A DNA stretch of 64,000 nucleotides from Thraustochytrium sp. TN22 (lineage: Eukaryota > Sar > Bigyra > Thraustochytrida > Thraustochytriidae): assembly GCA_013306675.1 (NCBI GenBank), contig JABLUY010000068.1:1-64000 (forward strand), given 5' to 3'. Shown here piece after piece: positions 7,308-33,189 of the stretch. The position numbers were made by a program, and so were the translations under genes. The first letter of the stretch is position 1. Each line of letters begins with the position of its first letter. The notes beneath the pieces are model-generated. The model ran no database searches. It saw only the letters and a program-made list of their open reading frames with translations, and was not told the DNA's origin.

Positions 7308-7340
<33 letters not shown>

Positions 7341-12942: not shown

Positions 12943-13542
12943 CTCGCTGCACCGCGCCGCCGCCGCGCGGACCGCCGCCGCCGTTAGGTTGCTGTAGGCG
13001 TCTGGATGCTCGACGCCGCGCGCCTTCGCGGCCCATGTAGCAGCCTTGGTCGCGCGTGACCTAACTGTCGCGGAAGGCCGGGCTGGGCCCGGCGGGCGCG
13101 GGCTCCGCCGGCGGGGAGTCGCAGAGGATGCTTGCCTGCAATGCCTGGCTTGGAATCGAGTCGACATCGATTTGGCGGCGCCTGGGGCTTTCCAGATTCG
13201 TCTCCTGCTGCCTTGTGGTCGGTAGGTGGGTTGGTGGTTGTGTGCGGAAGCTCGCCACCACCACGCACTTTGCACGCAATCCGACGCACGCTCGCGGCGT
13301 GAGCGAGCGCGCATCGGTCGTGTAGCGCTCTTGCCTTTGATTCTTTGATTCTTTTATATCTTGAGCAACGTCACAGGGGTCAGCGAAAGGCGGGCTTGCC
13401 TTCGCGGGGGGGGTTAGTCAGTAGGGATGTGTGGGTGATAAGTCGGGCTCTCTTGCACGCGAGTATTTGCTTGTGTAATTGGTTGGCGCGTTTGCTCGCA
13501 TGCTTACTCGCTTGCTTGCTTGATGTTGCAGCGCGCATCCAT
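12943..13542. other. Gap between TIPIN start and TBC1D23-like end
   Basis: Both neighbours are on the minus strand. The gap holds the TIPIN 5' flank and the 3' flank of the TBC gene. No open frame with family signal is seen. There is an eight-G run near 13409 and CTTG repeats around 13505. Confidence 0.5.
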
Positions 13543-16500: not shown

Positions 16501-16653
16501 GACCGTGGCTTCTGGGTCCGCTGGCACGGGCGCCGGGGCCTCGTCCGCGTCGCCGCCCGCGTCCACGTCCCTCCGCAGCGTCGCCGGCGGCGCGTCGCCC
16601 GCGTCGTTGGCCGCGTCGGGAGCCGACGCCTCCTGCTCCTGCTCTTGCTCCAT
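13543..16653 (-). CDS. TBC1D23-like Rab-GAP-family trafficking protein
   Basis: The ATG at 16653 (MEQEQEQEAS) gives 1,036 residues. An acidic, Ala-rich leader of about 180 residues precedes a TBC domain (about 195-430). The arginine finger is present as IRVDAQR (Arg249) and the glutamine finger as YKQ (Gln283). A rhodanese-like region follows (about 530-675; VDCRPREDFEAEHVIGS then SILEGGF) with a long insert and no recognisable catalytic cysteine. The last 130 residues match the TBC1D23 C-terminal domain. That order, TBC then rhodanese then C-terminal domain, is the TBC1D23 architecture. The animal protein bridges endosome-derived vesicles to golgins at the trans-Golgi. Human TBC1D23 is described as lacking the usual finger residues, so the intact pair here is notable. 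Confidence 0.88.
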   Translation of the reverse strand: MEQEQEQEASAPDAANDAGDAPPATLRRDVDAGGDADEAPAPVPADPEATVDGASGEPAEAGAVGEQEPRQEELKEAKDDAADSPAPASAAPEATDDGSPTAPAEAAVGVQRHGHEGLEDIKDAPRASEAPVASASMPTAAEEEAAGCATTDDATPDEAAAEEAATEESAEDPRSALRQELQKRRPSVFRIRKICREGLHGRIPAVCRSDVWQLLLGTESKDRFLLDDSIRDTKQDLENQRVIRVDAQRTRADVPVFRSEEMQQLVSRLLTFYCKRKGLRYKQGLNEVLAPFIMLRREPPLPDGTVFNLFYAFIERFLPHAYVHEDFHALQCSFRLFRLLLLYHDPELCNFLDTHGLSPELYATPWFLTLFARNVPLDVLFQLWDTYLLEEEDRGAHLHMFVALALTLENREGILQSHPSDLPIYLTSVLGPNASAQGSSSSESDEGALAQSSPFLYRVDWMDQLIARARRLRNHTPGLFMETMTRALLSPKLPSLTFLERLENQSCLHMSAPQLIGLLTNRDGMRSETDFILRLVDCRPREDFEAEHVIGSLHLDPELLNLPELLAEAMTSLGERLQLADLRLHLVVVGATPIVQGSPAGTPTGRQAHQASLDEDEVLGRTRSRSGSAAAAGPEGFAPAPLAEDQSAVLFVLHAIQRSFSQVSILEGGFGTIASEPDAAQLLESGASIDVLVDPERLLCETRSPVNTWRESGLETLRGALSTMAPLDARSSSESSIRLGTSSIESGESSQDAETGGARATRWFQRLGRHIGDAPLGALFARSPLAPAASEDSADGAQPQEQASPAAAAAAAAATASPKAGAQLTNTPKVEAPARKRIPAARATGAGAAGAGAQGDVAMQEDAQAMPPLTSVASALMSRVANRYFQGRGQAKQEEEAAENDMLEVAMAATDNETRWLDLDEWTAQTTGSGPHAKLFQAARLTVDEDGRKRSTKCVLAVTNKLLVELRAHPDRPTFACVQEAHTLATLIKITSKKKRQEIGFHFKAAPKVIKQRAFVIDDAAQCIGLVKRRYSEMAP

Positions 16654-16774
16654 GGCGCCGAGTCCCACGCCGCGACGCTGCGTCCCGCGAGCGCCCGGAG
16701 CCCGGCCAGGGGCCGGCCGCCGCGCGGCGCGCGCGCCGCCGCTCCCGCGCCGCCGCCGCCGCCGCCGCGCGTGC

Positions 16775-16804
16775 GCGAGCGAGCGAGCGAGCGAGCGAGC
16801 AAGC
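16775..16804. repeat. GAGC tetranucleotide array
   Basis: About seven GCGA units lie some 120-150 bases upstream of the TBC start on its 5' side. Confidence 0.85.
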
Positions 16805-16852
16805 GGCCGTCGATACGGGTCTGCGCGGGACGAGCCTCTGGCGCAGGTCAAG

Positions 16853-17230
16853 CAGCGCGAGCAGGTGGCGGCGTACGAGGACCTCGGCTCGGACCACGCG
16901 GCAGAGCTCCTCGCGTATGCGTTCTGGTTGCTAGCTTGGCTGGCAGGCCCCTCGAGTAGCTGAGTAGGCTGAGTAGAATGCTCATGAATCGGCAGCCGGC
17001 TCATCAGCTCGAAGGGCACGGCACGGCAGTGGGTGGCGGGTTTATGTGGCACGAGGAGCGCGAGCAGACGGCGGCGTACGAGGACCTTGACCATGCGGTG
17101 AAGACGCTTGCGCTTGCTTTAGAGTAAGGTCGTCACGAGGGACGCGAGCAGGCGGCGTGCATACAAACGCGGCAAGAGGCGGCGACAAGGACCTCGTCCA
17201 CGCGGCCCAAGATGCCGTCTTGGCGCTCTC
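16853..17230 (+). repeat. Three degenerate copies of a short helical coding segment
   Basis: Copies near 16853-16927, 17059-17124 and about 17183-17240 read in plus-strand frames as REQVAAYEDLGSDHAAELLA, REQTAAYEDLDHAVKTLALA and a weaker KDLVHAAQDAVLAL. The DNA is also similar (GCGCGAGCAGxxGGCGGCGTACGA in the first two). They look like decayed exon duplicates or exons of an unmodelled helical-repeat gene. Confidence 0.55.
16978..17127 (+). CDS. Possible 49-residue ORF carrying the second repeat copy
   Basis: ATG at 16978 opens 49 codons before TAA, including REQTAAYEDLDHAVKTLALA. Stops close all frames just upstream, so the ATG is a natural start. The end overlaps a GTAAGG donor-like site at 17124, so it could be a first exon. 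I do not recognise the family, and its similarity to the flanking copies is the main support. Confidence 0.3.
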   Translation: MLMNRQPAHQLEGHGTAVGGGFMWHEEREQTAAYEDLDHAVKTLALALE

Positions 17231-19077: not shown

Positions 19078-22000
19078 ATGGCCGGGCCGTCTCTGGAGCA
19101 GCGAGGCGGGCCGGCGCCGCTGGGCGCGCGGCCCGCGCGGCCGAGCGTGGCGGACCTGGTGCGCGCACCGCAGGGCGGCGCACTGCAGCCCGCCGAGGAG
19201 CAGGAGACCTGGGACCCGGCGCCGGCGGCCGACGCGCCCGTCGTGCGCAAGGAGCTGCGCAAGGAGACGCTGCGCAGGCAGCTGCTCTTTGCGACCTCTG
19301 TGGCCAAGGCAGCGGCGCTGCTGGACCCGAGTCTGCTGGTTGCAAACGGGGACGCCGGCGTGGAGGATGACGGCGCTGGCGTGATGGACGACACCAGCTT
19401 CCAGGATCTCCAAGACATGCGTAGCTGGCTGCTGCACAGGTGTCGCATCGACACCTCGCGCTGGGGCATGGCGCGGACCAAGCCGGCGGCCAGCCTGTAT
19501 CGGGAGCTCCAGAACAAGACCACCGTGCTCCTAATCGAGTGCGTCGGCCCTCGCCGCTATCGGCTCGTGCGCCTTGTGCGCGTGGTGCGTGTCAGACTGA
19601 AGCAGCGTAACGACAAGGGCCGCGCACGGTTCCTCGTGGAGGCATCGCAAGAGCTCGGGTCCACGGGGCAGCTCCGCTACCGCAACATGCTGCTCTCTTC
19701 CATTATGCGCTACAATGACAACGCCTACGTGGCGGCCAAGCGCAGTGTTGAAAAGGAGATGCAGAATATAAACATGACATCCGGTCGCTGCATTCCACGT
19801 AACGCTGTCAACGCGCGCCGCGGACATCCCTTCAGCGTGCACATTGAAGAGATGACGTCGCCTTCGTACCCGGACCTGCTCACGCGCTACGTACTCGCCA
19901 CAGTGGACGTCACGCTGGAGCGCAAACTGCCCATGACGGACTTTTGCACCGTTGAGTACCTGCCCACGGGCCACATCGCCACCAAACACTATTGGAAGTG
20001 GAGGACGCGCACCGACGTCGAGCAGATTCTCCAGCACGGCATGGATATCCAGCGCGGCCGCCGCGCCGCCGTCCTGCAGGATTCAGATGAGATCGTTGGC
20101 GGCGCAGATCGCGTGCTTTACAGTATCTGCGAGGCCGACTTTCGCCGCCCGACGGCGCCCGACGAGACAGAGCTGCCGCCGAGCTTGCCGCTCACGGTCC
20201 TCCGGCAGCACGCCAAGCTTTGGAGCTATAGCGACGCCGAAGCGGACGCGCTGCTCGACTTCGCTCGACAGTTTTCTGCAGATGGCGAAGCCTTGGAGCG
20301 CGCTGTCTTCGTGGAGAAGGTGAGCCCGTGCGTGGAGTCCATGGTCTTGGCGACCCAGGACGCGCTTCGGGCCGCAGGACTGCGGGACAACCATCTCACT
20401 GTGCTGCGGGGCCTTTTCCCGGATGCATGCCGGGTGCACGCGAAGATACTGCACGGCGGCTTCTCCGGGTCATTCGTCCTCGAGGCCTACGGCTGCTCTA
20501 TCGACGGTCGGCAGGGCGACCCCACCGTCGTCAAGCTCGACCGCCGCAACTCCATGCGCAACGAGCTGCGACGCTTCCGTGAGCTTGCGCCCTACATGGG
20601 TGACTGCGCGCCGGCTATACTCCGCGAGGACGTCGAGGAGTCTGATGAGTCTTGCCCTATTGGTGGCGTCCAGTTCGAGCTCGTGGGCGCCGCCTGGATG
20701 CTGCCCGAGTTTCACAGGCGCTCTTCGAACAGTACGGTGCCCCCAATTAGCACCTTCAAGGCGCTCTTTATCCAGGAGCTCGAGCAAGCCTGCGTCGTGG
20801 AGCTGCACACAATTCAGAAGCTCGGTAGCTCCCGCTTCCTTGGAGGACCCTTGCAGCTTACCGGCAGCGACGGCCGCGCCTCTTCGTCTGATATGCTCGA
20901 GCGGTCCCCGATGAGCCCGCCGAGCGCAAGCACTCCTCAAGGCTTCCAAAACGATGACGAGGCATACTACGATGAGGAGTCGGAGGAGATCGGCGGGGGC
21001 GGGGCCGCCGGTGAAGCCGAGGGCGACGACGCCGTCACGGAGGGCGCGCGGTCTCCAGCGACGCGGGGCAGCCTGGGCTCGCCGTCCGCGGTCTTCAACG
21101 TCACGGAGCCGCTGTACACGTTGGCCGGGTCCAGCGTAAACTTGCTAGGCAGTGCGCCGCGCGCGTACGGGCATGTCTCGCAGGTCCTCAAGGAGGTCTT
21201 TGGTGAGATTTTGCGCAAGACCACGTTGTCGTCGCGCGAGACCAAACCCACCAGCCTGTGCGTTGACCATTACGACCTCGAAAAGTACATCTCGCGAGTC
21301 TTGGAGATGCGCGAAAACCCGCAGGCGGCACGGGAGGTCGGCTGCGACCTCGACGCCCTGGACCCAGACGGTAGCGCAATTGAAAGCCTTCGTCGTTTTC
21401 TCGGCGCCATGGACCGCGCCAGGTACGCTTACCCATTAGGTCTCGTGCACGGAGACCTCAACGGCATGAACGTGCTCATTGACTCCCACGAGATTGTCTG
21501 GGTCATCGACTTTGCCTTCTCCGGCAAAGGTCATGTCCTCCGCGACATCGCCAAGCTGGAATCCAGCATCCTCTTTGAGTACACCCAGGCACGCAACGAG
21601 GAAGAGTGGGCCGCGCTTCAGCACGTGGCCGACGCCCTCATCGGTGTCGAGGACTTGCGCGAGCAACTGCAGTGTAGCCAATTGGACGCCGTGGCCGCGC
21701 CCTCAGGCGGCCTCTCCCGGGTCACTTTTGCGTGGCACGCAATCAAGCGTCTGCGCATGTACGCCGCAAACTACTGCGGCAGCGACCCGGAGCCGGCACA
21801 AATGCTCATCGCCATGCTGCACTTCTCGGTGCGCGCTCTTCGCTTTGGAGATATCGCAGACAAGCGCATGCCGCTCTATGTTGCGCAGCGCTGCGCGCAG
21901 CGTCTCACGCGCCTCATGGAGACGAATCAAGGGTCCATCAAGCCGGCTCTGCCACCGGAGAAGCTGCACGCACAGATTCCGAATGCGCTCAACGTGCACC

Positions 22001-25000
22001 TCAGCCCGGAACAAATTCGCTACGAGAAGGCGCGCTACTTTCACGATGTCCTGGTGCGTGAGTCCTTCGTGCCGGACATGATCACGCAGGAGCGAGTCAA
22101 TATTGCAGAACAGACTGTGGAGCTCGAAGTCCTCGAAGGCAGCACGCGCGAAAAGGTGCTGGAGACCGCCATGGACATCGACGAGATGCAGGCGCAACGG
22201 AGGCTCCTGCAGCGCCTCGACGCCCTTCATGGCGATCTCGCAAACGACGATGCCGGTTTTGCATGCCCGCGCCAGCTCGACGGCGTCGCGCGCTCGCGCT
22301 TCACCAGCGCGACGCAGGTGCTGGGCAACACGCGCGCAGAAGGCTATCGTGTCCTGCTGGGCGGGGCGGCTTCGGGCAAGTCCTGCCTGCTACGCAAGGT
22401 GCTCGTCTCCATGGCGCAGGACCAGAGCGAAGACGATGACGAGGACATCGTCCCAGTGCTCATCCTGCTCATCAGTTTGGGCCGGCTCATGACGGAGCAA
22501 AAACTGACCGCCGAGGACGATCTCATCGACGCCGCGCTCGTGGCGGCACACGGCGAGGGAAGCGCGCGACTGGCCTTTTTGCGCCAGATGCGCGAGGCCG
22601 GCCGCTTGCTGTATCTCTTCGACGGGCTCGACGAGGCCGGCGACCACAAGTCTGCGCTTGAGGAGTACCTTGGCAAGCTCGTGGGCCGCGAGCGGCGCGT
22701 CATCATCTCCTCGCGCGAGACAGGCTTCAACGAGTCGGTTTTTCGCGACTTTCAGTTCCTCCAGGTCATGCCGCTCACCGATAAGATGCAGAGTCAGATC
22801 GTCGAAATGCGCCTCGGAAGCGACCACCCGCGCCTGCTCGACATCCGTGCCGAGCTGCGCAAGCCGCAGTACGGCGAAATTGTGCGCAACCCGCTCATGC
22901 TCTCGCTCCTTGTCTCACTCCTGTCCAACCGGGCGCCCGCTGGGGCCAAGGCCGCCAAGCTCACGCGCTCGTACCTGTACAAGCATGCGGTCGACCAGCT
23001 GCTGCATCAAAGCTCCATGGGGAAGTTCGGGATGCGCCGGGGCGAGGATGACAAGAGCGTCGAGGAGACTCTGCGCGTGCTCAAGTCTCCCACCTGCTAC
23101 CGCTACCTCCGCGTGCTGGCCTTCATGGCCCACTCGCGGCGCATTCGGGACTTTGGACCCAACATGCTCATCGGCGCGGCCGAGCTATACGCCAAGGATC
23201 GCGTGTACGCTGACACCAAGGCGGCCCCTGTGACGCGCGACATCATGCTGGAGAAAGTATTCGAGGTCGCTGGCGTCCTGCAGGCCGCCGTGGCCTCCGG
23301 CCTCTGCGGGCTCTTCGCCACAAGCAAGGTGTCGACGCAGGCCAGGACCGCGGATGCTGGCTCGTCGCCCTCGCCGCGGCGGCGCCCAGGGCGCGCCCTG
23401 CCTTTAGAGGAGGGCCATCTCTTGCGCTTCGTGCACCTGAGCTTTCAGGAGTACCTCGCCGGCGTCTACCTCAAGGATCACCTGGAACAGGCGCTGCGGC
23501 AGGACATGGCGGTTCCGGAAGGCGGCGGCACGGCACTTCGCGACGCGATTGTCTCCCTCTTCCACATGCGCCCGGAAGAGGAGGACTGGGGCCTCTTGCA
23601 CGAGCCGTGGTGGCAGGCCACCCTGTGGAGTATGACAGGCTGCATGTCGGAGCAGCTTTTCTTGGCCTTTGTGGAGTGCTTGCTCGCTTGGGACGACCCA
23701 ACCGGGAACAACATCCTGCTCTGCGCCGAGATGCACGCCGAGGGCGTGGGCGCCGAGGACGCCTCCGTGAATCGCGAATCCGTGGGAGCCAAGGCGATCC
23801 ACCTGATCCGGCGCCGCTTCCAGGAGGCCATCGACACCGCCAAGCTCGCCGACGCGCTCACGCACCCGTCCCGCACGCTGCAGGTCATGGCGCTCACCGA
23901 GGTGCACAAGCTCTACGACCGCAGGCAGGCGGCCCACAGCATCATCTTCGGCTCGAACGCGCCTGAGTCGGCGAATCGCGAGGCGCTTCTTGGCCTGCCT
24001 TGGTACCGCCGCGCCGCGGCCGCCTTCGCACTCAGTCACCTCGTGGCGGACGACGCCGTCATCCTCGCGCTACTGGAGCTGTGGGCAGACGACAGCGCTC
24101 CCGTGCGGCGCGCTTCGGTCGAAGCGATCGCCGTACTGCGCGCCGAGCGGCACACGCTCGTTGTCGACGAGGTGCTTCGCCAGCTCCGCGACGACATCGA
24201 GTGCTCTAGCGGGCTCGAGGTGGTCAGCGCGCTGCGGCTCGAGCACCCGCGCCTCGTGGATGCCGTCGTCAGACTCATGGCCCTCGGCGGAGACACGGCC
24301 GCCGCAGCTGCCGAGACGCTCTCAGCCCTCCCACTCACCGAAGAGCTGCTCTACTGCCTTGCGCGCATCATGTCGCACGCTGAAGTGGCCGAGATGCGCG
24401 TCTGCGCGGCCGAGGCCTGCCTCGCGCGCTGTGCACAGGCGGAAAGCGAGCCGTCGTGGGATGCAGGCGGCGCGGCAAGCAGCAACAGCAACAGCAACAG
24501 CAGCTGTGGCAAAAACTCTGCCGCCCTCGTCGAGGGCGGAGAGGTTGACGGCACGTCCACCATCGTCGCCACCGTCACCGTCGCCACCACCACCACCACC
24601 ACCTCCACTCTACCCAAGTCCCGCAGCAACGGCCTCGTGCTCAACGAGACGCTCGAGACCGCATTCATCACCTGGCTTGAGCATGAGGAGCCCAGCTTCG
24701 TGTCCAGCGCCGCCGGAGTTCTCGCCAAGAGCGGCGTCAAGTCGTACGGTCTCGCACACGCGCTCTTTTCGCTGCAGAAGCGAATCTCGCAGATGCCTGG
24801 TGACCAGGCCGAGCTCTGGGACGCATGCTTCCAGGCGCTCGGCGTCGTCGCGCCTGTGATCGAGCAGGTGCATTTGGCGTTGCACGCACGCCTCACCAAG
24901 CCAGGGGCCCCGTCACGAGTCCAGTGCCTGCGGCAGCTGCAACTCCTTCTGCCTCGCCTCCACAACGACCACGTCGCAGCTTACGCAGAGAGCCTGCAGG

Positions 25001-28000
25001 CAATGATCAAGGATGACGCCGACCCAGCCGTCGCGCAGCTTGCCGTGGCCGTGGCGCGCCGCCTCGTGGCTGTCGATTCCGCGGCGCTCCGTGAGGTGCT
25101 CTACAGGCGCGAGGCAGCCGAAGTAGTGCGCATCGAGGCGCTCTCCGGCCTGCTCGACCGCGCAAGCCCGCTCGAGCCGGAGACACGCCTGCTGCAAGAG
25201 TGGATGACCGATGGCAAGACCGATCTCGTCGCTGCCGCAACAACCGCGCTTGTGCGCGGTGGAGACAGAGAGCGACTGTCCTCGTCGCTCTGTGCTGGCA
25301 TTGCGGCTTCATGGCAGCAGGCGCAGATTATCGTCGAGTCGCTCGAGGGCCACGTTGAGGCGCTCGTGAGCCTCCTGAGTCCGGATGACCTTGATGGCAT
25401 CCTCCTGGCTCTCTGCGAGGCCTACCTCTCGGGGGACGCTTACGCCGCAGCTGCCAGCGAGAAGAAAGAGACCGACACGCCTGAGGCAACGACCTTTCAA
25501 CTTGCTAGGACTCGCTTCTGCGATACTCTGAGCAGCCTGGGAGACGCCTCAATGGTCTTCTCAAACGCTGGGATCTGGCGCGACCTCTTTGACAGGGGCG
25601 ACGTGGCCCTCCGCATGGCCCTCGCCAACCTCATGTCCACCTGTACGTTCGATAATGTCGAGAGCATGCTCACAGCGACCGTCGCAGACCGGGCTGCGGA
25701 CAAGCGTGTCCGGGCGGCGCTAGCTCTCGCCATCCATCAGCATGGGCGCTGGAACGAGCCGCACATGCAAGATGCCATGTGCAGCTGGCTCCTCGAAAGC
25801 GACGACACGGCCTGCCTGGCCGCCGTCGACGTCTTGAGCGCCGTAGGAGACGTCGGCAAATCCATCGTCAAGGTGCTGCCGCAGCTGCTGCAAGGTCGCA
25901 CACCTACGATCGAAGCTCCCATGGTCGCACTAGAGCGAGCGCCAACAGTGCTCCAGAGCATCCTGCCGCGCCGAAACACGCGCGCTCGCATGCGTATCGC
26001 CGTGCAGTCGTACTTGACACGTCATAGCGAGCGACTGGCGCCGGATGGCGGCGGCGGCGGCGGCGATAATCTCGCGCGTGCTGTGCTCGGCAAGCTCGCG
26101 GTCCGCGACAGCATCGTGGAGGCCATTGGCGGGCTGGCGAGTCACCCGGACTTTTGCTTCGACGAGGAGGACGCCCTGGTTTGGCTTGGCGGCCCGCCGA
26201 ACCTGCAGCGCGTCGCCTGCGGGGTGCTGGCCAGGTCGGCGCGGGCCAGCGGTGCGTGCACGGACCGAGTCGCGACGCAGCTCTTCAACATTGCCGCAAG
26301 CGAGGGCGAGGTCGCGTCGGCAGCCCTTCGGACTCTCATGCTTGCCTTCCGCCGCCAGCTGCCGTGGATACCAGAGACAACCGCACGTCGTGTCCTGAGT
26401 GATTCTTCGGAGGAGCGTCGTGCGGCGCTCGCCACGTGCTCAGTGGCAGGGGGCTGGCCGAGCGTCGAGGCGTTTGCCGGGGAGCTCTCCGTTCTGCGCA
26501 AGCTCTGCCTGGATGATGAGGACCGCATCGTGCGTCTCGAGGCGGCCACCTTGCTCGCAGACTGGCTCCGCGTCGCCGGGGCGGCCGAGTCGCGAGGCAA
26601 CAGCGAGGAAAGCGAACCTCACCTACACGACGCTGGCCTGGCGCCAACGATGATGCGCGTAAAGGATGTCCTGTGCGCGGCGCTAGAGGGCGCGACGGAG
26701 GACGGTGGAGCAGCAGCGCCGCTTGTGGACATGGCGGTGGGCTGCGGGCTCGTGGAGGATCCGCACTTTCACCCGGCCCTTCTCAAGCTCATGAATGAAA
26801 GCTCCGAAGAGCATGTTCGCGTCGCTTGTAAGGGTGCACTCGCCAAGGCGGCGCACTTGGCGCCGGACGCGGCAAGCTTTGGCTGTGCAATGCAGACCCG
26901 GTCCTCAGAGGCCAAGATGCTGTGGATCGACATGCTCCTTCAGAGGAGCCGCGCGGATGGGCGGCGCATGCACGAGGAGGAGGACGTACGCATTGTGGAG
27001 TTCATCCGCAGGAGTATCCTGACTCAAGCGTCCACGCGTGAGGAGGCGGAGCTGCTCGTTCGCGTCATCTCGGTCCTGTCTACACTTCGTATCGCCATGG
27101 ATCGGGAGTTGCTGGCCTACAGTCTCAGGGTCGCGTCCGCCGCACTTGCGACGGGGCGTGCACAGTCCTTCCAGCGCATCCTCCGGTACCTCTTGGTGTG
27201 CGACCGGGTTCGTCTCGACGCGGAGATCGTACAGCGCCTGATCGAGCTGGGTTCTTCCGCAGACGAGAGCGTGGAGACGGACGCATCGGCCTCGCTGCTG
27301 AACTTCTTCGCCAAATACCAGGTGAAGGACTTTGCGGAGGCCCGAGAGCTGCTCAAGCTGGTGGGCACGGACCAGCAGGCCGCTCCGCTCCTCTTTGAGC
27401 CGCTGCTCGGGTTCTTGCGCCGCGAGCGCGTGCAGCGGGAGGCCAGCAAGGCGAGCCAGGAACGCACCGAGCTGTGGGACCTGGTGGACGAGCTCGTGCA
27501 GTCGCGGCGGACGCTGGAGGCCGCCTACTTGAGCAAGCAGCTCCGATTTGGCTCGGAGACGAGCGACCTGCGTGCCATCTCTATGGACCGTCTCGTCCTT
27601 CAGGGCCGTGGCAAGATTAAGGAGCAACGGATCCGGCGCCTCGCGCAGGAGAGCCTCAAGCGGTACGAGTGGGAGCACGCGCGCCAGGAGTGGTTCCCGG
27701 CGCCGGCGCTCGACTTCCAGACGAGCTCTCTCCCTGGACTGGCGTACCAGCAGAGCCGCCTCGTGCATGTCGACGTCGGCTTCTTCCTCAACGGCGTGCC
27801 GGACGAGATGGAAACGGAGCGCGAGCTGATCGTGCAAGAAGCCATTCCGGCGGCGAACCGCCGCCTCCAGGCTCTGGGTGTCCCGGTGTGCGTCTTCTGC
27901 TGCAATCCGGAGGTGCTTGGGGCATCCGTGCGACCGACGGACTTGAGCGGTCCAGGCGCGCAGGTCTCCGAGTCGGACGACGCGCGCAGCGGCACGAGCC

Positions 28001-30777
28001 GCGTGCAGGACCGCCTCTTCTTGGCCAAGGCCTGCAAGCCGTACATGCTGTGCCTGCTTGGGGAGCGATACGGACGGCCCCTGGCCCGGACCTCGCTACA
28101 GGAGAGCGTGCAAATGCTGGAGCGCGCCGAGGGATTCCTGGCGCAGCCCCTTCGCCCGACCAACGCGCTGTGCTACTTTCGCGATAATGCGTTCTTCCAG
28201 GACCTGGCGGCGCACCTGGAGAGCAGCGAGGACGGCGCTCGCTCGGGTCGCATCAGCGCCTTGAACAGCGCACGGACCGCGCAGACCGACCTGGAGCGCA
28301 CAGCAAGCCAGGACGGGGGTGTGCTGGCGCGCGGTACGGCCCCTGTTTGGCCCGAGACGTGCGGCGCTTTGGCGCTGGCCCTCGTGCGCCTCAAGCAGAC
28401 GTCAACCTGGGAGCACATTGGTGACTACCGCCTCAAGGTGCACTTTGACGCCGAGAAGCGCGCGATTCGCGCTCACCCATACGCAAAGTCCTCCAACATA
28501 GCGCTCTCTGAGCCTGTGGAGCTGACCGCACAGGGCCAGGTTGCGCCAGATGCGCTGCAGGCCTTTGTCGAGACCGTTGCGGAAGACCTCGAGGTGCGCA
28601 TCCTGGGCGACTTTCCGGTTCGTGCGGCGTACCGCGCAGCGCTCTCCGTCGGGACGGTGTGCGGGTCGCACGAGATTGCGCGGCAGCTTCCATTCAACCT
28701 GGTCGACGAGCAGCGCATTCACGAGCAGGTCCTTCTGGCCAACTCGCAGATATCGCGCTTTGGCACCGTGCTGGGCGGCTTGCAGCCACCGCGTTGCCGC
28801 CGGTCGCTGTACTACCTCCTGGAGAACCTGATGGCGGACGACAGCGCACGGGACACGCTCCTCAAGAATGAGCGGCGGATGGTGACGAACCCAAAGTTTT
28901 TGACTCCGAACCGAGACTTGGGCAATGAGGTCGTGCTCGTCACGGGCGAGCCGTACATGGGCAAGACCACCGTGTTGGCTACCTTTACAGACTACCTGCG
29001 CATGCGCTCGAGGCCCGTGGCACCGGTGATCTTCCATGCCTGCGCGGCAACCGGTGCGTCGACGGACCTTGCCTTCATGCTGGTGCGCCTCGGTGTGGAG
29101 CTGCTCAACTCCTTCGAGCGCCGCGTGGACGATATCGCCGCGTGGGCGCCCCCAAGCGGCGCTGGCCTTCACCTAGAGGCGGTAAAGGCTTGGTGGCATC
29201 GTGTTTTGCGCGCAGTCTCGGAGTTCGCGCTCGCCGAGACACGCCGCGTGGTGGTCATCGACGGTCTCTTCGAGGACCTCGACCCGGCGCTGCACCCGCC
29301 CGAGGCCATCTGGTCTGCTCTTTTGCCGAATGACTTCGGCCGGCGCTGCCCCCCAGGGCTCTCTCTTGTGCTCTCCGCGACGCGAGGTGGTCTGGCGCAG
29401 GAACTGGCCGCCTCTAGCCCGGACACCACCGTGCCGCTGCGCGAGGTCGCCGTGGCCGCCCCGGACCAGGAGGGCCGCGTTGCGCTGCTGGCAGACGCCT
29501 TCGCGCGGCGCAAGTTGGCGCCAACGCGCGAGCTGCTGCAGCGCCTTTCGCGCAGCGTCGAGCTACGCACACCTGGCCACCTCGACCTCTTCGTGGACCA
29601 CGTTACAACGCTCTCGTGCGCGCAGACGGGTATCGAACAAGCAATCCTCGCGTATGCGTCCTCGTCGTCGTTGTCTTCGACCTTCTCCTCCTCGCGGGTG
29701 CTCTCGGGGCCTTTGCGTGACATAATGTCATCCTCCAAGTCGGATAGGGTCGCTGCGGAGTTCGACGGCGACGGTGAGGGTGGTACCGCTATTGATGGTC
29801 CCGCTGAAACGGTGCTCAACGACGTCCTGGACCCTCTGGAGGCCGTCTTTGGACGGTCACTGTGCCGCACGCTCCTCCTGAGCCTCGTGTTGGCCGGGCC
29901 GACGGACGAGCACGACCTCTTTGACTTTTGCGCGCTGCACGCGGAAGGCTTCTCGCCCTCGGACTGGGAGCGTCTCTGTCTGCGCGCCGCCCCCCTGCTG
30001 CTGTGCTATTCGGTACACGGCGTGGGCGGTCTTTGGCAGCGTAAGACGTCCTCACTGCGCAGCCACGACTCGAGGTATTCGCGCAAGTCGGAGGCGCGGC
30101 GGTCGACGCATGTGACGGCGCGCTCGCAGGACTCTGTGGCGCTGCGCCGCCGTGGCCCAACTTTGATGAGCTTCTTCGACACCAAGAGGATCGCCAGGCA
30201 CGCATCCGTGCCGGAGGAGCTGGCAGGGTCCCTCGAGGCGGCGGCACGCAGCGTGTCGGTCCTCCGAGTCAAGTCTGGCTGGCTGGAGAGCGCCATATTA
30301 ACGCGCTACTGCGACCCGAACGGCCACGGTCACCAGGAGCTGAGGCGTCTGTACGCGCACCTGTGCGAGTTTTGGACGGCGCGCCTGCACGAGTGCAGCC
30401 GCACCGGGCCTGTCGAGGCGCCGGTGGTGGCGCCGCACCGGGCGGCCATCATGCGCAAGGTGGTGCACTTCGCGCTCAACGCAAGCGAGGTGCTGAGGCA
30501 CCTCGAGCAAACGCTCCTGAGCTCACGTACATTGCGGGCCATGGCGGCCCAGAGCGTCTGGCACGACGCCGTGCGTGGAGTACTTCGCGACATGAACCTC
30601 GCGCTCGAGGCGCTGGAGGACGAGGCAATTCTGGCGCGGATCGGGGGGGATGACCCCGAGGCACGGTCTGCGGCCGCGCGAGCGTGCGCCGACCGCATCC
30701 GCTTTGCTCGCGAGCGAATCGCGGCAAATGTGGACGAGATCATCGCCAAGCCAGCTTGCGTCTCAGAGCTGCTCTGA
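19078..30777 (+). CDS. Giant double-STAND NTPase with a phosphotransferase-like kinase domain
   Basis: A 3,899-residue single open frame starting MAGPSLEQ. The order seen is as follows. (1) An N-terminal domain, about 139-330, not recognised. (2) A phosphotransferase-like kinase fold, about 390-870, with HGDLNGMN (His791) and WVIDF (Asp811), the catalytic-loop and metal motifs of aminoglycoside-phosphotransferase/choline-kinase-like enzymes. (3) A NACHT NTPase, about 1090-1330, with P-loop GGAASGKS (Lys1101), LYLFDGLDEAG (Asp1182) and VIISSRETG. (4) A HEAT-like alpha-solenoid, about 1600-2850. (5) A DUF4062-like region from about 2896 (ERELIVQEAIP then LLGERYG). (6) A second NTPase with GEPYMGKTT (Lys3296) and VVVIDG (Asp3395), then a winged-helix-like tail. 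STAND ATPases act as oligomerising switches in immunity and cell death. A sensor or effector role here is inference. No membrane segment is seen. Confidence 0.88.
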   Translation: MAGPSLEQRGGPAPLGARPARPSVADLVRAPQGGALQPAEEQETWDPAPAADAPVVRKELRKETLRRQLLFATSVAKAAALLDPSLLVANGDAGVEDDGAGVMDDTSFQDLQDMRSWLLHRCRIDTSRWGMARTKPAASLYRELQNKTTVLLIECVGPRRYRLVRLVRVVRVRLKQRNDKGRARFLVEASQELGSTGQLRYRNMLLSSIMRYNDNAYVAAKRSVEKEMQNINMTSGRCIPRNAVNARRGHPFSVHIEEMTSPSYPDLLTRYVLATVDVTLERKLPMTDFCTVEYLPTGHIATKHYWKWRTRTDVEQILQHGMDIQRGRRAAVLQDSDEIVGGADRVLYSICEADFRRPTAPDETELPPSLPLTVLRQHAKLWSYSDAEADALLDFARQFSADGEALERAVFVEKVSPCVESMVLATQDALRAAGLRDNHLTVLRGLFPDACRVHAKILHGGFSGSFVLEAYGCSIDGRQGDPTVVKLDRRNSMRNELRRFRELAPYMGDCAPAILREDVEESDESCPIGGVQFELVGAAWMLPEFHRRSSNSTVPPISTFKALFIQELEQACVVELHTIQKLGSSRFLGGPLQLTGSDGRASSSDMLERSPMSPPSASTPQGFQNDDEAYYDEESEEIGGGGAAGEAEGDDAVTEGARSPATRGSLGSPSAVFNVTEPLYTLAGSSVNLLGSAPRAYGHVSQVLKEVFGEILRKTTLSSRETKPTSLCVDHYDLEKYISRVLEMRENPQAAREVGCDLDALDPDGSAIESLRRFLGAMDRARYAYPLGLVHGDLNGMNVLIDSHEIVWVIDFAFSGKGHVLRDIAKLESSILFEYTQARNEEEWAALQHVADALIGVEDLREQLQCSQLDAVAAPSGGLSRVTFAWHAIKRLRMYAANYCGSDPEPAQMLIAMLHFSVRALRFGDIADKRMPLYVAQRCAQRLTRLMETNQGSIKPALPPEKLHAQIPNALNVHLSPEQIRYEKARYFHDVLVRESFVPDMITQERVNIAEQTVELEVLEGSTREKVLETAMDIDEMQAQRRLLQRLDALHGDLANDDAGFACPRQLDGVARSRFTSATQVLGNTRAEGYRVLLGGAASGKSCLLRKVLVSMAQDQSEDDDEDIVPVLILLISLGRLMTEQKLTAEDDLIDAALVAAHGEGSARLAFLRQMREAGRLLYLFDGLDEAGDHKSALEEYLGKLVGRERRVIISSRETGFNESVFRDFQFLQVMPLTDKMQSQIVEMRLGSDHPRLLDIRAELRKPQYGEIVRNPLMLSLLVSLLSNRAPAGAKAAKLTRSYLYKHAVDQLLHQSSMGKFGMRRGEDDKSVEETLRVLKSPTCYRYLRVLAFMAHSRRIRDFGPNMLIGAAELYAKDRVYADTKAAPVTRDIMLEKVFEVAGVLQAAVASGLCGLFATSKVSTQARTADAGSSPSPRRRPGRALPLEEGHLLRFVHLSFQEYLAGVYLKDHLEQALRQDMAVPEGGGTALRDAIVSLFHMRPEEEDWGLLHEPWWQATLWSMTGCMSEQLFLAFVECLLAWDDPTGNNILLCAEMHAEGVGAEDASVNRESVGAKAIHLIRRRFQEAIDTAKLADALTHPSRTLQVMALTEVHKLYDRRQAAHSIIFGSNAPESANREALLGLPWYRRAAAAFALSHLVADDAVILALLELWADDSAPVRRASVEAIAVLRAERHTLVVDEVLRQLRDDIECSSGLEVVSALRLEHPRLVDAVVRLMALGGDTAAAAAETLSALPLTEELLYCLARIMSHAEVAEMRVCAAEACLARCAQAESEPSWDAGGAASSNSNSNSSCGKNSAALVEGGEVDGTSTIVATVTVATTTTTTSTLPKSRSNGLVLNETLETAFITWLEHEEPSFVSSAAGVLAKSGVKSYGLAHALFSLQKRISQMPGDQAELWDACFQALGVVAPVIEQVHLALHARLTKPGAPSRVQCLRQLQLLLPRLHNDHVAAYAESLQAMIKDDADPAVAQLAVAVARRLVAVDSAALREVLYRREAAEVVRIEALSGLLDRASPLEPETRLLQEWMTDGKTDLVAAATTALVRGGDRERLSSSLCAGIAASWQQAQIIVESLEGHVEALVSLLSPDDLDGILLALCEAYLSGDAYAAAASEKKETDTPEATTFQLARTRFCDTLSSLGDASMVFSNAGIWRDLFDRGDVALRMALANLMSTCTFDNVESMLTATVADRAADKRVRAALALAIHQHGRWNEPHMQDAMCSWLLESDDTACLAAVDVLSAVGDVGKSIVKVLPQLLQGRTPTIEAPMVALERAPTVLQSILPRRNTRARMRIAVQSYLTRHSERLAPDGGGGGGDNLARAVLGKLAVRDSIVEAIGGLASHPDFCFDEEDALVWLGGPPNLQRVACGVLARSARASGACTDRVATQLFNIAASEGEVASAALRTLMLAFRRQLPWIPETTARRVLSDSSEERRAALATCSVAGGWPSVEAFAGELSVLRKLCLDDEDRIVRLEAATLLADWLRVAGAAESRGNSEESEPHLHDAGLAPTMMRVKDVLCAALEGATEDGGAAAPLVDMAVGCGLVEDPHFHPALLKLMNESSEEHVRVACKGALAKAAHLAPDAASFGCAMQTRSSEAKMLWIDMLLQRSRADGRRMHEEEDVRIVEFIRRSILTQASTREEAELLVRVISVLSTLRIAMDRELLAYSLRVASAALATGRAQSFQRILRYLLVCDRVRLDAEIVQRLIELGSSADESVETDASASLLNFFAKYQVKDFAEARELLKLVGTDQQAAPLLFEPLLGFLRRERVQREASKASQERTELWDLVDELVQSRRTLEAAYLSKQLRFGSETSDLRAISMDRLVLQGRGKIKEQRIRRLAQESLKRYEWEHARQEWFPAPALDFQTSSLPGLAYQQSRLVHVDVGFFLNGVPDEMETERELIVQEAIPAANRRLQALGVPVCVFCCNPEVLGASVRPTDLSGPGAQVSESDDARSGTSRVQDRLFLAKACKPYMLCLLGERYGRPLARTSLQESVQMLERAEGFLAQPLRPTNALCYFRDNAFFQDLAAHLESSEDGARSGRISALNSARTAQTDLERTASQDGGVLARGTAPVWPETCGALALALVRLKQTSTWEHIGDYRLKVHFDAEKRAIRAHPYAKSSNIALSEPVELTAQGQVAPDALQAFVETVAEDLEVRILGDFPVRAAYRAALSVGTVCGSHEIARQLPFNLVDEQRIHEQVLLANSQISRFGTVLGGLQPPRCRRSLYYLLENLMADDSARDTLLKNERRMVTNPKFLTPNRDLGNEVVLVTGEPYMGKTTVLATFTDYLRMRSRPVAPVIFHACAATGASTDLAFMLVRLGVELLNSFERRVDDIAAWAPPSGAGLHLEAVKAWWHRVLRAVSEFALAETRRVVVIDGLFEDLDPALHPPEAIWSALLPNDFGRRCPPGLSLVLSATRGGLAQELAASSPDTTVPLREVAVAAPDQEGRVALLADAFARRKLAPTRELLQRLSRSVELRTPGHLDLFVDHVTTLSCAQTGIEQAILAYASSSSLSSTFSSSRVLSGPLRDIMSSSKSDRVAAEFDGDGEGGTAIDGPAETVLNDVLDPLEAVFGRSLCRTLLLSLVLAGPTDEHDLFDFCALHAEGFSPSDWERLCLRAAPLLLCYSVHGVGGLWQRKTSSLRSHDSRYSRKSEARRSTHVTARSQDSVALRRRGPTLMSFFDTKRIARHASVPEELAGSLEAAARSVSVLRVKSGWLESAILTRYCDPNGHGHQELRRLYAHLCEFWTARLHECSRTGPVEAPVVAPHRAAIMRKVVHFALNASEVLRHLEQTLLSSRTLRAMAAQSVWHDAVRGVLRDMNLALEALEDEAILARIGGDDPEARSAAARACADRIRFARERIAANVDEIIAKPACVSELL
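24476..24610 (+). repeat. Low-complexity Asn/Ser and Thr coding tracts
   Basis: CAGCAA-type repeats encode SSNSNSNSS, and an ACC run (24581-24605) encodes a run of threonines. They form a loop inside the HEAT-like solenoid of the giant NTPase. Confidence 0.8.
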
Positions 30778-30859: not shown

Positions 30860-32683
30860 TTAGTCGTACGCGGAGCTTGCGTTGCTAGTGGTTGCCTCCA
30901 GGGTGGACGCCCGGCGGCGGCGGAGGTGAAGCAGATTTTTCTTGGCAACGAAAACGGTGAAGCCGAGACTCTGGAAGGATTTGAGTGTGACCGGCGTAAA
31001 GGCGTCCTTCACCTCAGCGTCTGAGACCGACACAGGCTCCAAGATGTCTGGCAGGAAGAAGTCATGGCGCCCTCCGTTTGTGCACCACGGGTGGCGCGCG
31101 ATCGCGTCAAGCCGGGCTCGCTGCGAGGTGTCCTTCTCCAGGATGGATCGCAGCAGGTCCTCGACGTCGGCCTCGCTCGCCTCGATGTGCTCTATCGAGC
31201 TCCTGACGCTGGCACCGTGCGTCGCCACGGGGTCCCGCGAAGGATACACCACTTTACCTTCTTGGATGGCCTGGACCAGCGCGTCGGCGCTCGCGGCGAT
31301 GAAGGGCGGCCGGCCGAAGACCATCATGTAAAGAGTGGCGCCAAGGGCCCAAATGTCAGCGAGCTTGCCGTTGAATTCCTCGCCCGAGCACATCTCCGGT
31401 GCGATGAAGGCCATGGTGCCTTCGGTGTTGTTAATGAGGGGGAGCTCATCTTCCTTGAACATCTGCGCCGCGCCAAAGTCCGAGAGGTACAAATGGTCGG
31501 TCTTGCGGTCCACGAGCAAGTTGCTCGGCTTGATGTCCTTGTGAATAATGTTGTTCTTGTGCAGGAAATCCACTGCTGAGACGAGCTGCACAAACAACTT
31601 GCGTGCACGGATCTCCTCGAGGGCCGAGCCTGCATAACTATCCTGCATCAGCGCACCGCCATCAACGAAGTTCGTCACCAAGTACGTCTTGGGGTGTTCT
31701 GGGTCGTTGATAACCTCGATGAGCGGTAAGATGTTGGGATGCCGAAGGCGTTTCTGGATCGCCACTTCGCGCTTGATGGCGTCCCCGCCGCCGCCCGCGC
31801 CGCGTGCGCCGAAGCGCAGCCGCATCATGCGCTTGCGGTCAATTATCTTGATGGCAAACCACTCGCCGTTTTCGTGCTGCGCCTTGACCACGATGCCGAA
31901 GCTCCCTGCGCCCAGCACGGCGCCGAGGCGGTACGAGTTCACGCGCATCGCGTCGCCGTCCTCGTTGGTGATCACTCGACTTGTGCGTGTCTGAACGGTG
32001 GTACCAAGTGCACTGTCCTGGACGCCCTGGGGCGAGAGCGCCTCGCGTTTGACAAGTGAGGATCGTCGAGCGCTGCGCTCCTCATCGGCATGCTCGCCCT
32101 CGTTTCTGTTGGCATTTTCTTCGCAGCTACGCCCGGACCCATCTTGCGGGCGCTGCCTTGGGGATGATGACTCTGGCCTCGTCGAGTTGAGCTGCCATGG
32201 GTCTCCAGGCGTTCGCGGTTGCCACGGCTGGCTGCCGCCCTCGGCGAGCCCTGCAATGTCACGCGCCAGGCGCCGATACCTTGTGAGAAGCTCCTTCGCA
32301 ATGTCAAGGTCCGACACGTCTGCGGCCTCTGGGTCGCGCCCCTGCTCCTCCTCGGCGAGGCGGACGGCCTCCGCCACGAAGTCTTTAGCCGCGCTGGCTC
32401 GCAGCCTCGCCGTGACCGAGCGGACGTCCTCCGCTGCCCCCTGGCCCTGGCCTTCTTCTTGCTCTTGTTGCTGCTGCTGCGTCGATGCTTCGCCGGCCTT
32501 GTCGCAGCTCGCGGCGCTGCCCATAATGGCCGCAGCCCGCGGGTTCGCCGCGGCTTCCTCTGCGCGCGTAGCCGGGGCGCATCGAGCTTTGACGGCAGCC
32601 TTCTCCGAGCTCTGGCCGAGGCTGCCTGGCCCATGACTCGGACGCAACTTGCCAAAAGCCACAACTTGCGTCAACGACTCCAT
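30860..32683 (-). CDS. CaMKK-like serine/threonine kinase, possibly N-myristoylated
   Basis: From the ATG at 32683 the protein has 607 residues. A second in-frame ATG at 32524 starts MGSAASCDK, a classic myristoylation-plus-palmitoylation sequence, gives 554 residues and may be the true start. The kinase domain is complete: GAGSFG loop, FAIKII (Lys279), HKDIKPSN (Asp383), DFG (Asp402) and APE. The stretch KRMMRLRF...AIQKRLRHPNILPLIEVINDP, with a Gly/Arg insert, and the ending ARHPWCTNGG resemble calcium/calmodulin-dependent kinase kinases and related AMPK-activating kinases. Poly-Gln/Glu and acidic stretches precede the domain. No clear calmodulin-binding helix was identified. Its end is 82 bases from the convergent giant NTPase gene. 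Confidence 0.85.
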   Translation of the reverse strand: MESLTQVVAFGKLRPSHGPGSLGQSSEKAAVKARCAPATRAEEAAANPRAAAIMGSAASCDKAGEASTQQQQQEQEEGQGQGAAEDVRSVTARLRASAAKDFVAEAVRLAEEEQGRDPEAADVSDLDIAKELLTRYRRLARDIAGLAEGGSQPWQPRTPGDPWQLNSTRPESSSPRQRPQDGSGRSCEENANRNEGEHADEERSARRSSLVKREALSPQGVQDSALGTTVQTRTSRVITNEDGDAMRVNSYRLGAVLGAGSFGIVVKAQHENGEWFAIKIIDRKRMMRLRFGARGAGGGGDAIKREVAIQKRLRHPNILPLIEVINDPEHPKTYLVTNFVDGGALMQDSYAGSALEEIRARKLFVQLVSAVDFLHKNNIIHKDIKPSNLLVDRKTDHLYLSDFGAAQMFKEDELPLINNTEGTMAFIAPEMCSGEEFNGKLADIWALGATLYMMVFGRPPFIAASADALVQAIQEGKVVYPSRDPVATHGASVRSSIEHIEASEADVEDLLRSILEKDTSQRARLDAIARHPWCTNGGRHDFFLPDILEPVSVSDAEVKDAFTPVTLKSFQSLGFTVFVAKKNLLHLRRRRASTLEATTSNASSAYD

Positions 32684-33189
32684 GGCACCCGATCCGATCG
32701 GATACCAGTGACTCGAGAAGTGCCAACGTTGGCACAAGCACTGGGCAAGCCAAGAACAAGCAAGCCAAGAACAAGCAGGCCAAGGACAAGCAAGCCAAGG
32801 ACAAGCAAGCAAGCAACAGGCAGGCAGGCAGGCAGGCAAGAAGACAAGCAAGCCAAGAACAAGCAAGCCAAGAACAAGCAAGCAAGCAACAGGCAGGCAG
32901 GCAGGCAAGCAGACTCGCAAGCAAACAAGCAAGCAAACAAGCAAGCAAGCAAACACGCAACCAACCAATCAAGCAACCGACCAAGCGAAATGCCAGTGTG
33001 ACGCGCCATCCATGGAAGCAAAGACAACGAGGGCGCCTTCGTTGCCGCATTGGACAGCGCTACGTTCACGTTGTTGCAGCGGTCGTGAGCGCGCATTTCG
33101 CGAATGATGTTGGAGACGAGCCAAACGAGCAAGCATGTGTGCGGGTGTCATGATCAGAGAAAGGAAGAAGATGACACCAGCGTGTGAGG
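32684..33189. other. Upstream flank of the CaMKK-like gene
   Basis: The gap lies between two minus-strand genes. Most of it is a CAAGC-rich minisatellite. The frame that continues upstream of the kinase ATG reads as Leu/Cys/Ala repeats from this DNA and has no in-frame ATG, so I treat it as untranslated. Confidence 0.6.
32740..32990. repeat. CAAGCCAAGAA-type minisatellite
   Basis: Repeated CAAGCCAAGA(A/G) units of about 10 bases and GGCA tetramers fill this 250-base stretch, including two blocks of CAACAGGCAGGCAGGCAGGC. It lies 60-300 bases upstream of the kinase start. Confidence 0.9.

What the first reader, a model, noticed from the sequence alone, without database searches (positions are those of the whole stretch)
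19078..30777. A 3,899-residue protein with two STAND-type NTPases and a kinase-like domain in one chain
The sequence shows two complete P-loop sites 2,195 residues apart (GGAASGKS and GEPYMGKTT), each with its own Walker B. The first is preceded by a phosphotransferase-like HGDLNxxN/IDF module and followed by a very long HEAT-like solenoid. The second is preceded by a DUF4062-like region. NACHT proteins are known immune or cell-death switches, and DUF4062 with an NTPase is known from TEP1/NWD-type proteins. Kinase-like modules next to NACHT are known from bacterial conflict systems. I know of no described protein that carries all of these. It could be a self-contained surveillance machine with two switches.
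Basis: partly seen in the sequence, partly recalled or inferred. Interest (0 to 1): 0.9.

Follow-up and report, generated by a model that had tools for sequence, protein, structure and literature searches.

The report
Giant eukaryotic protein with two switches
A eukaryote of unknown identity carries one 3,899-residue protein that strings together a kinase-like part, a NACHT switch, a probable sensor coil, a probable NAD-destroying TIR-like part and a second switch, a set that would make it a two-output immune or cell-death receptor if it works as its relatives do.

Summary
The open frame is real: 19078-30777 (+), 3,899 codons without a stop, coding-like composition throughout, among eukaryotic genes.

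The 'kinase-like' block is TCAD9 (PF19974, E 4e-32), an APH-type kinase domain linked to bacterial conflict systems, with its catalytic residues kept. The first P-loop is a NACHT domain (E 7e-10). The next 1,260 residues are probably a HEAT-like solenoid, on weak evidence. The 'DUF4062-like' block is a diverged relative of TEP1/NWD-type DUF4062 domains (Prob 82.6, E 9.7e-6; best decoy 0.014). It keeps the Glu that a 2026 preprint shows to be needed in TEP1, where DUF4062 is a TIR-like NADase. The second P-loop is an NPHP3_N-type STAND.

Bacterial proteins found here carry TCAD9-STAND, SIR2-NACHT-HEAT and DUF4062-STAND in separate chains. The window joins a kinase-STAND-repeat unit to a TIR-like-STAND unit. 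Best reading: a two-effector STAND receptor of a conflict or cell-death system. Function, organism and orthologues are untested. New variant of a known kind.

The parts
19078..30777 (+). single open frame, 3,899 aa plus stop
   Evidence: composition by codon position
19078..20397 (+). residues 1-440: N-terminal region, low complexity to about residue 60, then an orphan region
   Evidence: pieces from residue 59 or 90 on: no Pfam (E up to 10), NCBIfam, PADLOC or PHROG match; fold model uninformative, pLDDT 33
20428..21882 (+). residues 451-935: TCAD9 / APH-type kinase domain; G-loop GGFSGS 460-465, K486, E496, HGDLNGMN 791-798, IDF 810-812
   Evidence: PF19974 E 4e-32, APH E 3e-10; catalytic columns invariant in the 9 rows
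20875..21282 (+). residues about 600-735: low-complexity insert inside the kinase domain
   Evidence: gap in most bacterial rows; third-position GC 0.81 in block 601-750
22330..22977 (+). residues 1085-1300: NACHT domain; Walker A 1095-1102, Walker B 1178-1188, VIISSRE 1208-1214, NPLMLSLL 1271-1278
   Evidence: PF05729 E 7e-10; 29% identity over 246 columns to a SIR2-NACHT-HEAT protein; motifs
23635..27417 (+). residues 1520-2780: probable HEAT-like alpha-solenoid
   Evidence: HEAT_2 E 0.0011, below cut-off; 2 repeat-consensus matches at the lowest threshold against a mean of 0.08 in 50 shuffles, none at the two higher thresholds
27760..28185 (+). residues 2895-3036: diverged DUF4062 (TIR-like) domain; R2997, E3015, ALCYFRD 3030-3036
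   Evidence: hhalign Prob 82.6, E 9.7e-6 against 0.014 for the best non-overlapping decoy; catalytic-Glu alignment
28120..28122 (+). codon of E3015, equivalent of the TEP1 catalytic E1008
   Evidence: aligned with the Glu of L071-L073, which aligns with TEP1 E1008
28909..29268 (+). residues 3278-3397: second STAND NTPase (NPHP3_N); Walker A 3290-3298, Walker B 3391-3397
   Evidence: PF24883 E 1.2e-5 for the piece, 1.7e-7 for the whole protein
29425..30774 (+). residues 3450-3899: C-terminal region after the second NTPase, no recognised sensor repeats
   Evidence: Pfam lists only NTPase families in the 28801-30774 piece

Best explanation
It is a single-chain STAND receptor with two effector-switch units. 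Unit 1 is TCAD9 kinase - NACHT - HEAT-like solenoid. Unit 2 is DUF4062 TIR-like NADase - NPHP3_N STAND. At rest both NTPases are held closed, with the solenoid between them acting as the sensor. A ligand on the solenoid (an invader or damage signal) would open the NACHT, exchange nucleotide and assemble several chains. Assembly would bring the kinase domains together and, through the second STAND, align the TIR-like domains so that they hydrolyse NAD+, giving arrest or death of the cell. Shown here: the open frame, the domain identities (HEAT weakly), intact P-loops and kinase catalytic residues, and the kept TIR-like Glu. Inferred from relatives: nucleotide switching, oligomerisation, NADase and kinase activity. 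Guess: the ligand, the kinase substrate, the order of the two switches, and the immune role itself.
For: Domain calls. Kinase catalytic columns invariant in 9 of 9 aligned rows, the 8 bacterial ones chosen from the 18 used in the tree. DUF4062 block with decoy control; E3015 and R2997 kept. Preprint PMC13174449: DUF4062 is a TIR-like NADase in antiphage defence and in TEP1, where it lies next to a NACHT ATPase (passages and Discussion). Bacterial chains with the same grammar: TCAD9-nSTAND5 (L051; L050 with nSTAND5 below cut-off), TCAD9-NB-ARC-TPR (L052), SIR2-NACHT-HEAT (L001), DUF4062-NACHT (L074, L075), DUF4062-NPHP3_N (L076; L072 with WD40 repeats). L051 lies beside a gene resembling a type I restriction R subunit. 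TCAD9 is named as associated with vWA-MoxR-VMAP conflict systems (PMC10910872, one legend passage).
Against: The preprint found only TEP1 active among TEP1, NWD1, NWD2 and NPHP3, so a DUF4062-STAND protein need not be a NADase. The SST motif and TEP1 R908 are not kept (NGVP, D2909). The window protein itself found no TEP1 chain in the PDB sequences (E up to 0.1), and wider DUF4062 profiles align less well (Prob 11, 31 and 66.8). No orthologue, expression or activity data exist here. The second STAND has no recognised sensor repeats behind it. HEAT support is weak. The 20 other window ORFs scanned show no conflict-system theme. TCAD9 also occurs in receiver, STAS, Clp_N and phosphatase fusions, which suggests general signalling uses too.
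Confidence: 0.5

Rival explanations
1. A giant intracellular scaffold or signalling protein with no immune role. The DUF4062-NPHP3_N half works as a structural STAND, as in NPHP3 or NWD1, and the APH-like domain modifies a small molecule or protein in ordinary signalling.
For: NPHP3, NWD1 and NWD2 showed no NADase activity in the preprint. TCAD9 is fused in bacteria to receiver, STAS, Clp_N and phosphatase domains. The recognised neighbours look like housekeeping genes.
Against: The TEP1 catalytic Glu and one active-site Arg are kept. The kinase catalytic residues are kept. The effector-STAND-repeat order is that of conflict proteins.
Confidence: 0.27
2. A metabolic or stress switch: an APH-type small-molecule kinase whose activity is gated by the NACHT-solenoid, with a dead DUF4062 remnant as a docking module.
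For: The first block also matches APH (E 3e-10). The DUF4062 block is diverged and below Pfam detection.
Against: A remnant would not be expected to keep E3015, R2997 and the YFRD motif at the spacing of a relative such as L071.
Confidence: 0.12
3. An artefact: two neighbouring genes joined by an assembly error, or exons of different genes read through an in-frame intron.
For: No relative with the whole order was found, though no eukaryotic collection could be searched. The window is raw sequence without reads or transcripts.
Against: 3,899 codons without a stop and a coding composition in every block. The next gene, a converging kinase frame, begins 82 bases behind the stop.
Confidence: 0.07

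Closest known systems
TEP1 / NWD1 / NWD2 / NPHP3 (DUF4062-NACHT proteins)
   Same: DUF4062 before an NPHP3_N/NACHT-type STAND (preprint passages); catalytic Glu and YFRD positions as in TEP1 and bacterial L071
   Different: No WD40 or TPR repeats found behind the STAND; a TCAD9-NACHT-solenoid unit precedes it; SST motif lost
Bacterial TCAD9-STAND proteins (L050, L051, L052)
   Same: APH-like TCAD9 at the N-terminal side of a STAND NTPase, with TPR repeats behind it in L052
   Different: nSTAND5 (below cut-off in L050) or NB-ARC instead of NACHT; 1,142-1,492 aa; no DUF4062 match; TCAD9 sequences remote (window against the same genes in L044 and L045: E 1.4e-5 and 3.9e-4; that in L033 not listed at E 0.01)
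SIR2-NACHT-HEAT protein of an Azotobacter plasmid (L001)
   Same: effector - NACHT - HEAT order; the one plasmid match to residues 440-1500 at E 1e-3
   Different: SIR2 effector instead of kinase; annotated gene of 969 aa; one switch only
Isochorismatase-TCAD9-phosphatase proteins (L077, L078)
   Same: nearest sampled TCAD9 sequences to the window (phmmer E about 1e-32; tree support 89/86, not starred)
   Different: No NTPase family in the chain at E 0.001
Swarozyc antiphage system (PMC13174449)
   Same: DUF4062 TIR-like domain as executioner
   Different: The passages read describe a TIR-like domain, stalk and auxiliary domain activated by a phage portal, and mention no kinase, NACHT or solenoid for it

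Membership tests
STAND NTPase, NACHT clade (first switch) | Profile match with Walker A and Walker B | tested here: met
   PF05729 E 7e-10, 39.3 bits against 26.7; GGAASGKS and LYLFDGLDEAG
STAND NTPase, NACHT clade (first switch) | Arg after Walker B and the NP-L stretch of the helical part | tested here: met
   VIISSRE 1208-1214 and NPLMLSLL 1271-1278, aligned with L001; motif meaning recalled
STAND NTPase, NPHP3_N type (second switch) | Profile match with Walker A and Walker B | tested here: met
   PF24883 E 1.2e-5, 26.0 bits against 24.8; GEPYMGKTT, VVVIDGL
STAND NTPase, NPHP3_N type (second switch) | C-terminal sensor repeats (WD40, TPR, LRR) | tested here: not met
   no repeat family in the 28801-30774 piece
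TCAD9 (PF19974) | Profile over gathering score | tested here: met
   112.4 bits against 40
TCAD9 / APH kinase | G-loop, beta-3 Lys, helix-C Glu, catalytic Asp and Asn, metal Asp | tested here: met
   invariant with 8 bacterial rows, chosen from 18; roles of the columns recalled
TCAD9 ternary conflict systems | Partner genes vWA and MoxR | not tested
   No genome is held. None among the 20 other window ORFs scanned at E 0.001
DUF4062 / TIR-like NADase | Profile similarity | tested here: met
   No Pfam hit, but hhalign Prob 82.6 with decoys for a profile of three TEP1-like rows; weaker with other profiles
DUF4062 / TIR-like NADase | Catalytic Glu (TEP1 E1008) | tested here: met
   E3015
DUF4062 / TIR-like NADase | SST motif and R908 | tested here: not met
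   NGVP and D2909; R908 also absent in L071-L073
DUF4062 / TIR-like NADase | NAD+ hydrolysis | not testable with these tools
   needs protein
HEAT solenoid | Repeated helical hairpins recognised by profile | tested here: inconclusive
   HEAT_2 E 0.0011, below cut-off
NLR (plant/animal immune receptor) | LRR or other sensor C-terminal to one NBD, with immune function | tested here: inconclusive
   a solenoid after the NACHT is plausible, no LRR family listed; function not testable

The most novel reading that the evidence does not exclude
A eukaryotic receptor that builds two different death or defence outputs, a bacterial-type TCAD9 kinase and a TIR-like NADase, each gated by its own STAND switch, into one chain with one shared solenoid sensor. 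It would be a physical two-key gate in which the first switch licenses the second, and, as far as the literature searches go, the first TCAD9 described in a eukaryote.
Probability: 0.3. Interest if true: 0.85.

Novelty: new variant of a known kind. Interest (0 to 1): 0.62.

Why it matters
Each part is known, but in the bacterial chains scanned here the two units sit in separate proteins. If the chain works as predicted, it links bacterial conflict modules (TCAD9, effector-NACHT-HEAT) and the newly described DUF4062 NADases to a single eukaryotic receptor. It would offer a natural case for asking whether two STAND switches act in series, and a second eukaryotic setting, besides TEP1, in which DUF4062 NADase activity can be tested directly.

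Tried and rejected
A DNA pattern for the TCAD9 motif IDFxxxGxxHxxxDxxxLE was written one base short (third base of the Gly codon missing). It was used in viral contigs (2 hits, not TCAD9 on reading) and in the only genome-contig scan. None of the 15 stretches reached E 1 with the window TCAD9 as query (best 1.1); the printed output was cut before the second query, so that result was not seen. The scan was wasted and served only to give centres for the genome search. The corrected pattern found 0 in viral contigs.

Protein scans of viral contigs with three queries found no relative. The plasmid search with residues 2821-3899 found none. The lax plasmid search with the TCAD9 C-lobe (E up to 10) listed 127 records; I fetched two: the Rhizobium one is a TCAD9, the Gemmatirosa one matches only around a kinase-type HGD motif.

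Structure predictions of residues 90-439 and 2787-3309 had mean pLDDT 33 and 35, so no fold search was made. PDB sequence searches with residues 90-439, 1051-1500 and 3242-3899 gave nothing better than E 0.42.

The 'phylum of G003' search matched five of the six genomes, and its listed unmatched genomes bear the same handles. It is not independent, the group label of G003 is doubtful, and its 5 of 249 are added to no count.

DUF4062 profiles: all 15 stretches gave Prob 11, E 0.0027; at least one row (L068) was read in a wrong frame. The three TEP1-like rows were chosen after seeing these 15. The two-domain profile gave Prob 31, E 5e-4 and aligned only the DUF4062 part. A profile meant to have six rows had four, because my expression missed L075 and L076; Prob 66.8, E 5e-5. 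L076 alone finds the region at E 5.8e-5 in that small set.

That the window's TCAD9-NACHT fusion has a separate origin from bacterial TCAD9-STAND fusions is suggested by the tree but not shown: holding them together costs 4.67 log units, p-AU 0.283, and the window row has a long branch whose place the program calls unsure.

A Nudix-like identity of residues 130-340 was considered from memory; no search supports it. PADLOC gave only weak matches for the window (PD-T4-6 E 0.0043, mad8 E 0.0028), not used. NCBIfam's antiphage EruA model reaches E 5e-5 on the NACHT piece but 21.6 bits against a cut-off of 1000, not claimed. One search failed and was replaced. The regions (L085-L088) were fetched and not analysed.

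Full report
What was checked. The frame 19078-30777 (+) gives 3,899 residues and a stop. GC at the three codon positions is 0.69/0.47/0.81 overall; of 26 blocks of 150 codons the second position is lowest in 26 and the third highest in 24 (the exceptions are 1951-2100 and 2401-2550), and six neighbouring genes look alike. It is therefore one coding unit in the sequence as given; whether a transcript spans it is unknown. The window is eukaryotic by gene content: Npa1/NopRA1 ribosome-biogenesis protein (35051-42229), Swi3 (11776-13314), RabGAP-TBC (13546-17094), a Ser/Thr kinase (30863-32968) and a PTP-like phytase protein with three matched stretches (4233-8879). No genome is held for it.

Unit 1. 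Residues 451-935 match TCAD9 (PF19974) at E 4e-32 and APH at E 3e-10 when the piece is scanned alone. Alignment with eight bacterial TCAD9 rows, chosen from the 18 later used in the tree, leaves these columns invariant: G461, S463, G464, K486, E496, H791, G792, D793, N798, I810, D811, F812, and also D823, L827, R893. The first twelve hold the set expected of an active APH-type kinase; the roles of the columns are recalled from the kinase fold. The window row carries a low-complexity insert of about 135 residues that is coding by composition. Next comes a NACHT domain (PF05729, E 7e-10) with Walker A, Walker B, VIISSRE and NPLMLSLL. With residues 440-1500 as query, the one plasmid record at E 1e-3 is an Azotobacter protein (L001), which Pfam reads as SIR2-NACHT-HEAT; 29% identity over 246 columns in the NACHT. 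Residues 1520-2780 are rich in Ala and Leu. HEAT_2 reaches E 0.0011 in the piece and 1.1 in the whole protein, below its cut-off. A recalled repeat consensus finds 2 matches at the lowest of three thresholds against a mean of 0.08 in 50 shuffles, none at the two higher ones, and also 2 in the longer Npa1 protein. I call this a probable HEAT-like solenoid, no more.

Unit 2. Pfam finds nothing at residues 2775-3301. PF13271 was then sought in 120 bacterial genomes and found in 14, giving 15 stretches. A profile of all 15 (at least one misread) aligns to residues 2880-3110 with E 0.0027, best other 0.048. Three rows with TEP1-like motifs (L064, L065, L067) were then taken as a profile: Prob 82.6, E 9.7e-6. 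Of 283 sequences compared (windows of this and eight other window proteins, 100 shuffles, one reversal, the region itself), the top four overlap this region and the best that does not has E 0.014 (each E-value is for one comparison). Two wider profiles gave Prob 31 and 66.8. The full bacterial proteins are DUF4062 with NPHP3-like TPR and a P-loop string (L071), DUF4062-NPHP3_N with WD40 (L072), DUF4062 with a P-loop string and WD40 (L073), DUF4062-NACHT (L074, L075) and DUF4062-NPHP3_N (L076).

The catalytic residue. A 2026 preprint (PMC13174449; outline, passages and Discussion seen) reports that DUF4062 is a TIR-like NADase, that the activity of human TEP1 depends on E1008, and that changing R908 or R976 lowers it. 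L071 finds the deposited TEP1 chain 11gz_A at E 6.6e-19; the window protein as a whole did not (E up to 0.1). In that chain one offset of 893 puts R908, R954, R976 and E1008 on Arg, Arg, Arg and Glu (counted by hand). E1008 is the last letter of SVTEME and R976 lies in GSRYG. The window has SVQMLE with E3015 and LLGERYG with R2997, and MAFFT puts E3015 under the Glu of L071-L073. From the Glu to the Tyr of YFRD there are 18 residues in the window and L071 and 20 in TEP1 (hand count). A pattern of the three motifs in order hits the window once and, in 1,069,836 translated residues of window and loci, only L074 besides, itself a DUF4062 protein. That pattern was written after seeing the window and misses L071-L073, so it illustrates rather than tests. 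R908 and the SST motif are not kept; R908 is also absent from the bacterial rows. The second NTPase follows (NPHP3_N, E 1.2e-5 for the piece), and no repeat family is recognised behind it.

Bacterial counterparts. TCAD9 is uncommon in the genomes searched. Matches at E 1e-8 or better were found in 1 of 346, 12 of 301, 6 of 398 and 4 of 199 genomes drawn from the phyla of an Eggerthellaceae, a Dehalococcoidia, a Burkholderiales and a Thermoanaerobaculia MAG, with 0, 9, 3 and 4 over the family cut-off (phyla are inferred from record titles, see Tried and rejected on G003). Fusions seen: TCAD9-nSTAND5 (L051 36.4 bits; L050 25.0 bits against a cut-off of 34), TCAD9-NB-ARC-TPR (L052), receiver-TCAD9 (L054; by position also L002), Clp_N-TCAD9 (L055), isochorismatase-TCAD9-phosphatase (L077, L078; the isochorismatase match of L077 is below cut-off) and STAS-TCAD9 (L083, L084). 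The gene beside L051 resembles a type I restriction R subunit. The window TCAD9 is nearest to L077 and L078 (support 89/86 on a long branch). A common origin with the TCAD9-STAND clade is not rejected (p-AU 0.283). Of 11 TCAD9 chains scanned with Pfam (L002, L050-L055, L077, L078, L083, L084; that of L053 below cut-off), none also matched DUF4062.

Mechanism. STAND proteins are read as switches that assemble when a signal binds their repeats, and TIR-type NADases need assembly to be active (established knowledge; the preprint's passages say so for TIR domains and propose it for TEP1). The order effector-STAND-repeats appears here, followed by effector-STAND. I therefore infer a receptor with a kinase output and a NADase output. 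The solenoid lies between the two switches, where it could sense for both. Whether the switches act in series, which ligand is sensed, and what the kinase modifies are open. Against this reading: three human DUF4062-STAND proteins (NWD1, NWD2, NPHP3) had no NADase activity in the preprint, the window's DUF4062 is diverged, and no functional data exist.

Literature. TCAD9 occurs in 4 papers of the held library, 2 listed. I opened one, PMC10910872, whose figure legend names TCAD9 as associated with vWA-MoxR-VMAP; the other, on Plasmodium drug pressure, was not opened. 'Ternary complex associated domain' gave 0 papers. Five phrases for proteins with two NACHT domains gave 0 papers. A search for protist or thraustochytrid NLR-like proteins gave 7 papers, and one for NACHT, stramenopile and STAND gave 17 (15 listed), seen only as listings; no title or abstract start points to such a chain. 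The ternary-system papers mention a few APH-like kinases among effectors (PMC7159879, PMC8195603; passages). These searches do not show that the architecture is absent from print or from databases.

Verdict. The combination is a new variant of known kinds. The immune role is the most likely reading at about even odds.

Noticed in passing
window 42277-44493 (-): 739-aa protein with DUF2254 (E 2e-7), a predicted membrane-protein family that I recall as mainly bacterial, in an otherwise eukaryotic neighbourhood.
   Followed up: no
window 1661-3529 (+): TPR_12 / NPHP3-type TPR protein (TPR_NPHP3 107.7 bits against a cut-off of 100) in the same window as the NPHP3_N protein. Upstream of it, no P-loop, LLGERYG, YFRD or SSTF string in the three + frames.
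   Followed up: partly
window 3492-3795 (+): Two stretches 280 bases apart, at and behind the end of the TPR frame, translate in two different frames to the same string around GSKNAGKS: a local duplication.
   Followed up: no
window 32745-32984: GCAA-rich tandem arrays (periods 4, 15, 16, 73) at the 5' end of the kinase frame 30863-32968, so its true start is probably further inside.
   Followed up: no
window 4233-8879 (-): PTP-like phytase protein with three matched stretches (PF14566, E 4e-141), paladin-like by recall.
   Followed up: no
L077:898-3270, L078:7-2565: Bacterial single chains carrying isochorismatase-like, TCAD9 kinase and dual-specificity phosphatase domains: a kinase and a phosphatase in one protein, of unknown use.
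   Followed up: partly
window 22351-23031 (+): PHROG family 18297 (unknown function) matches the NACHT piece at E 4e-14.
   Followed up: no
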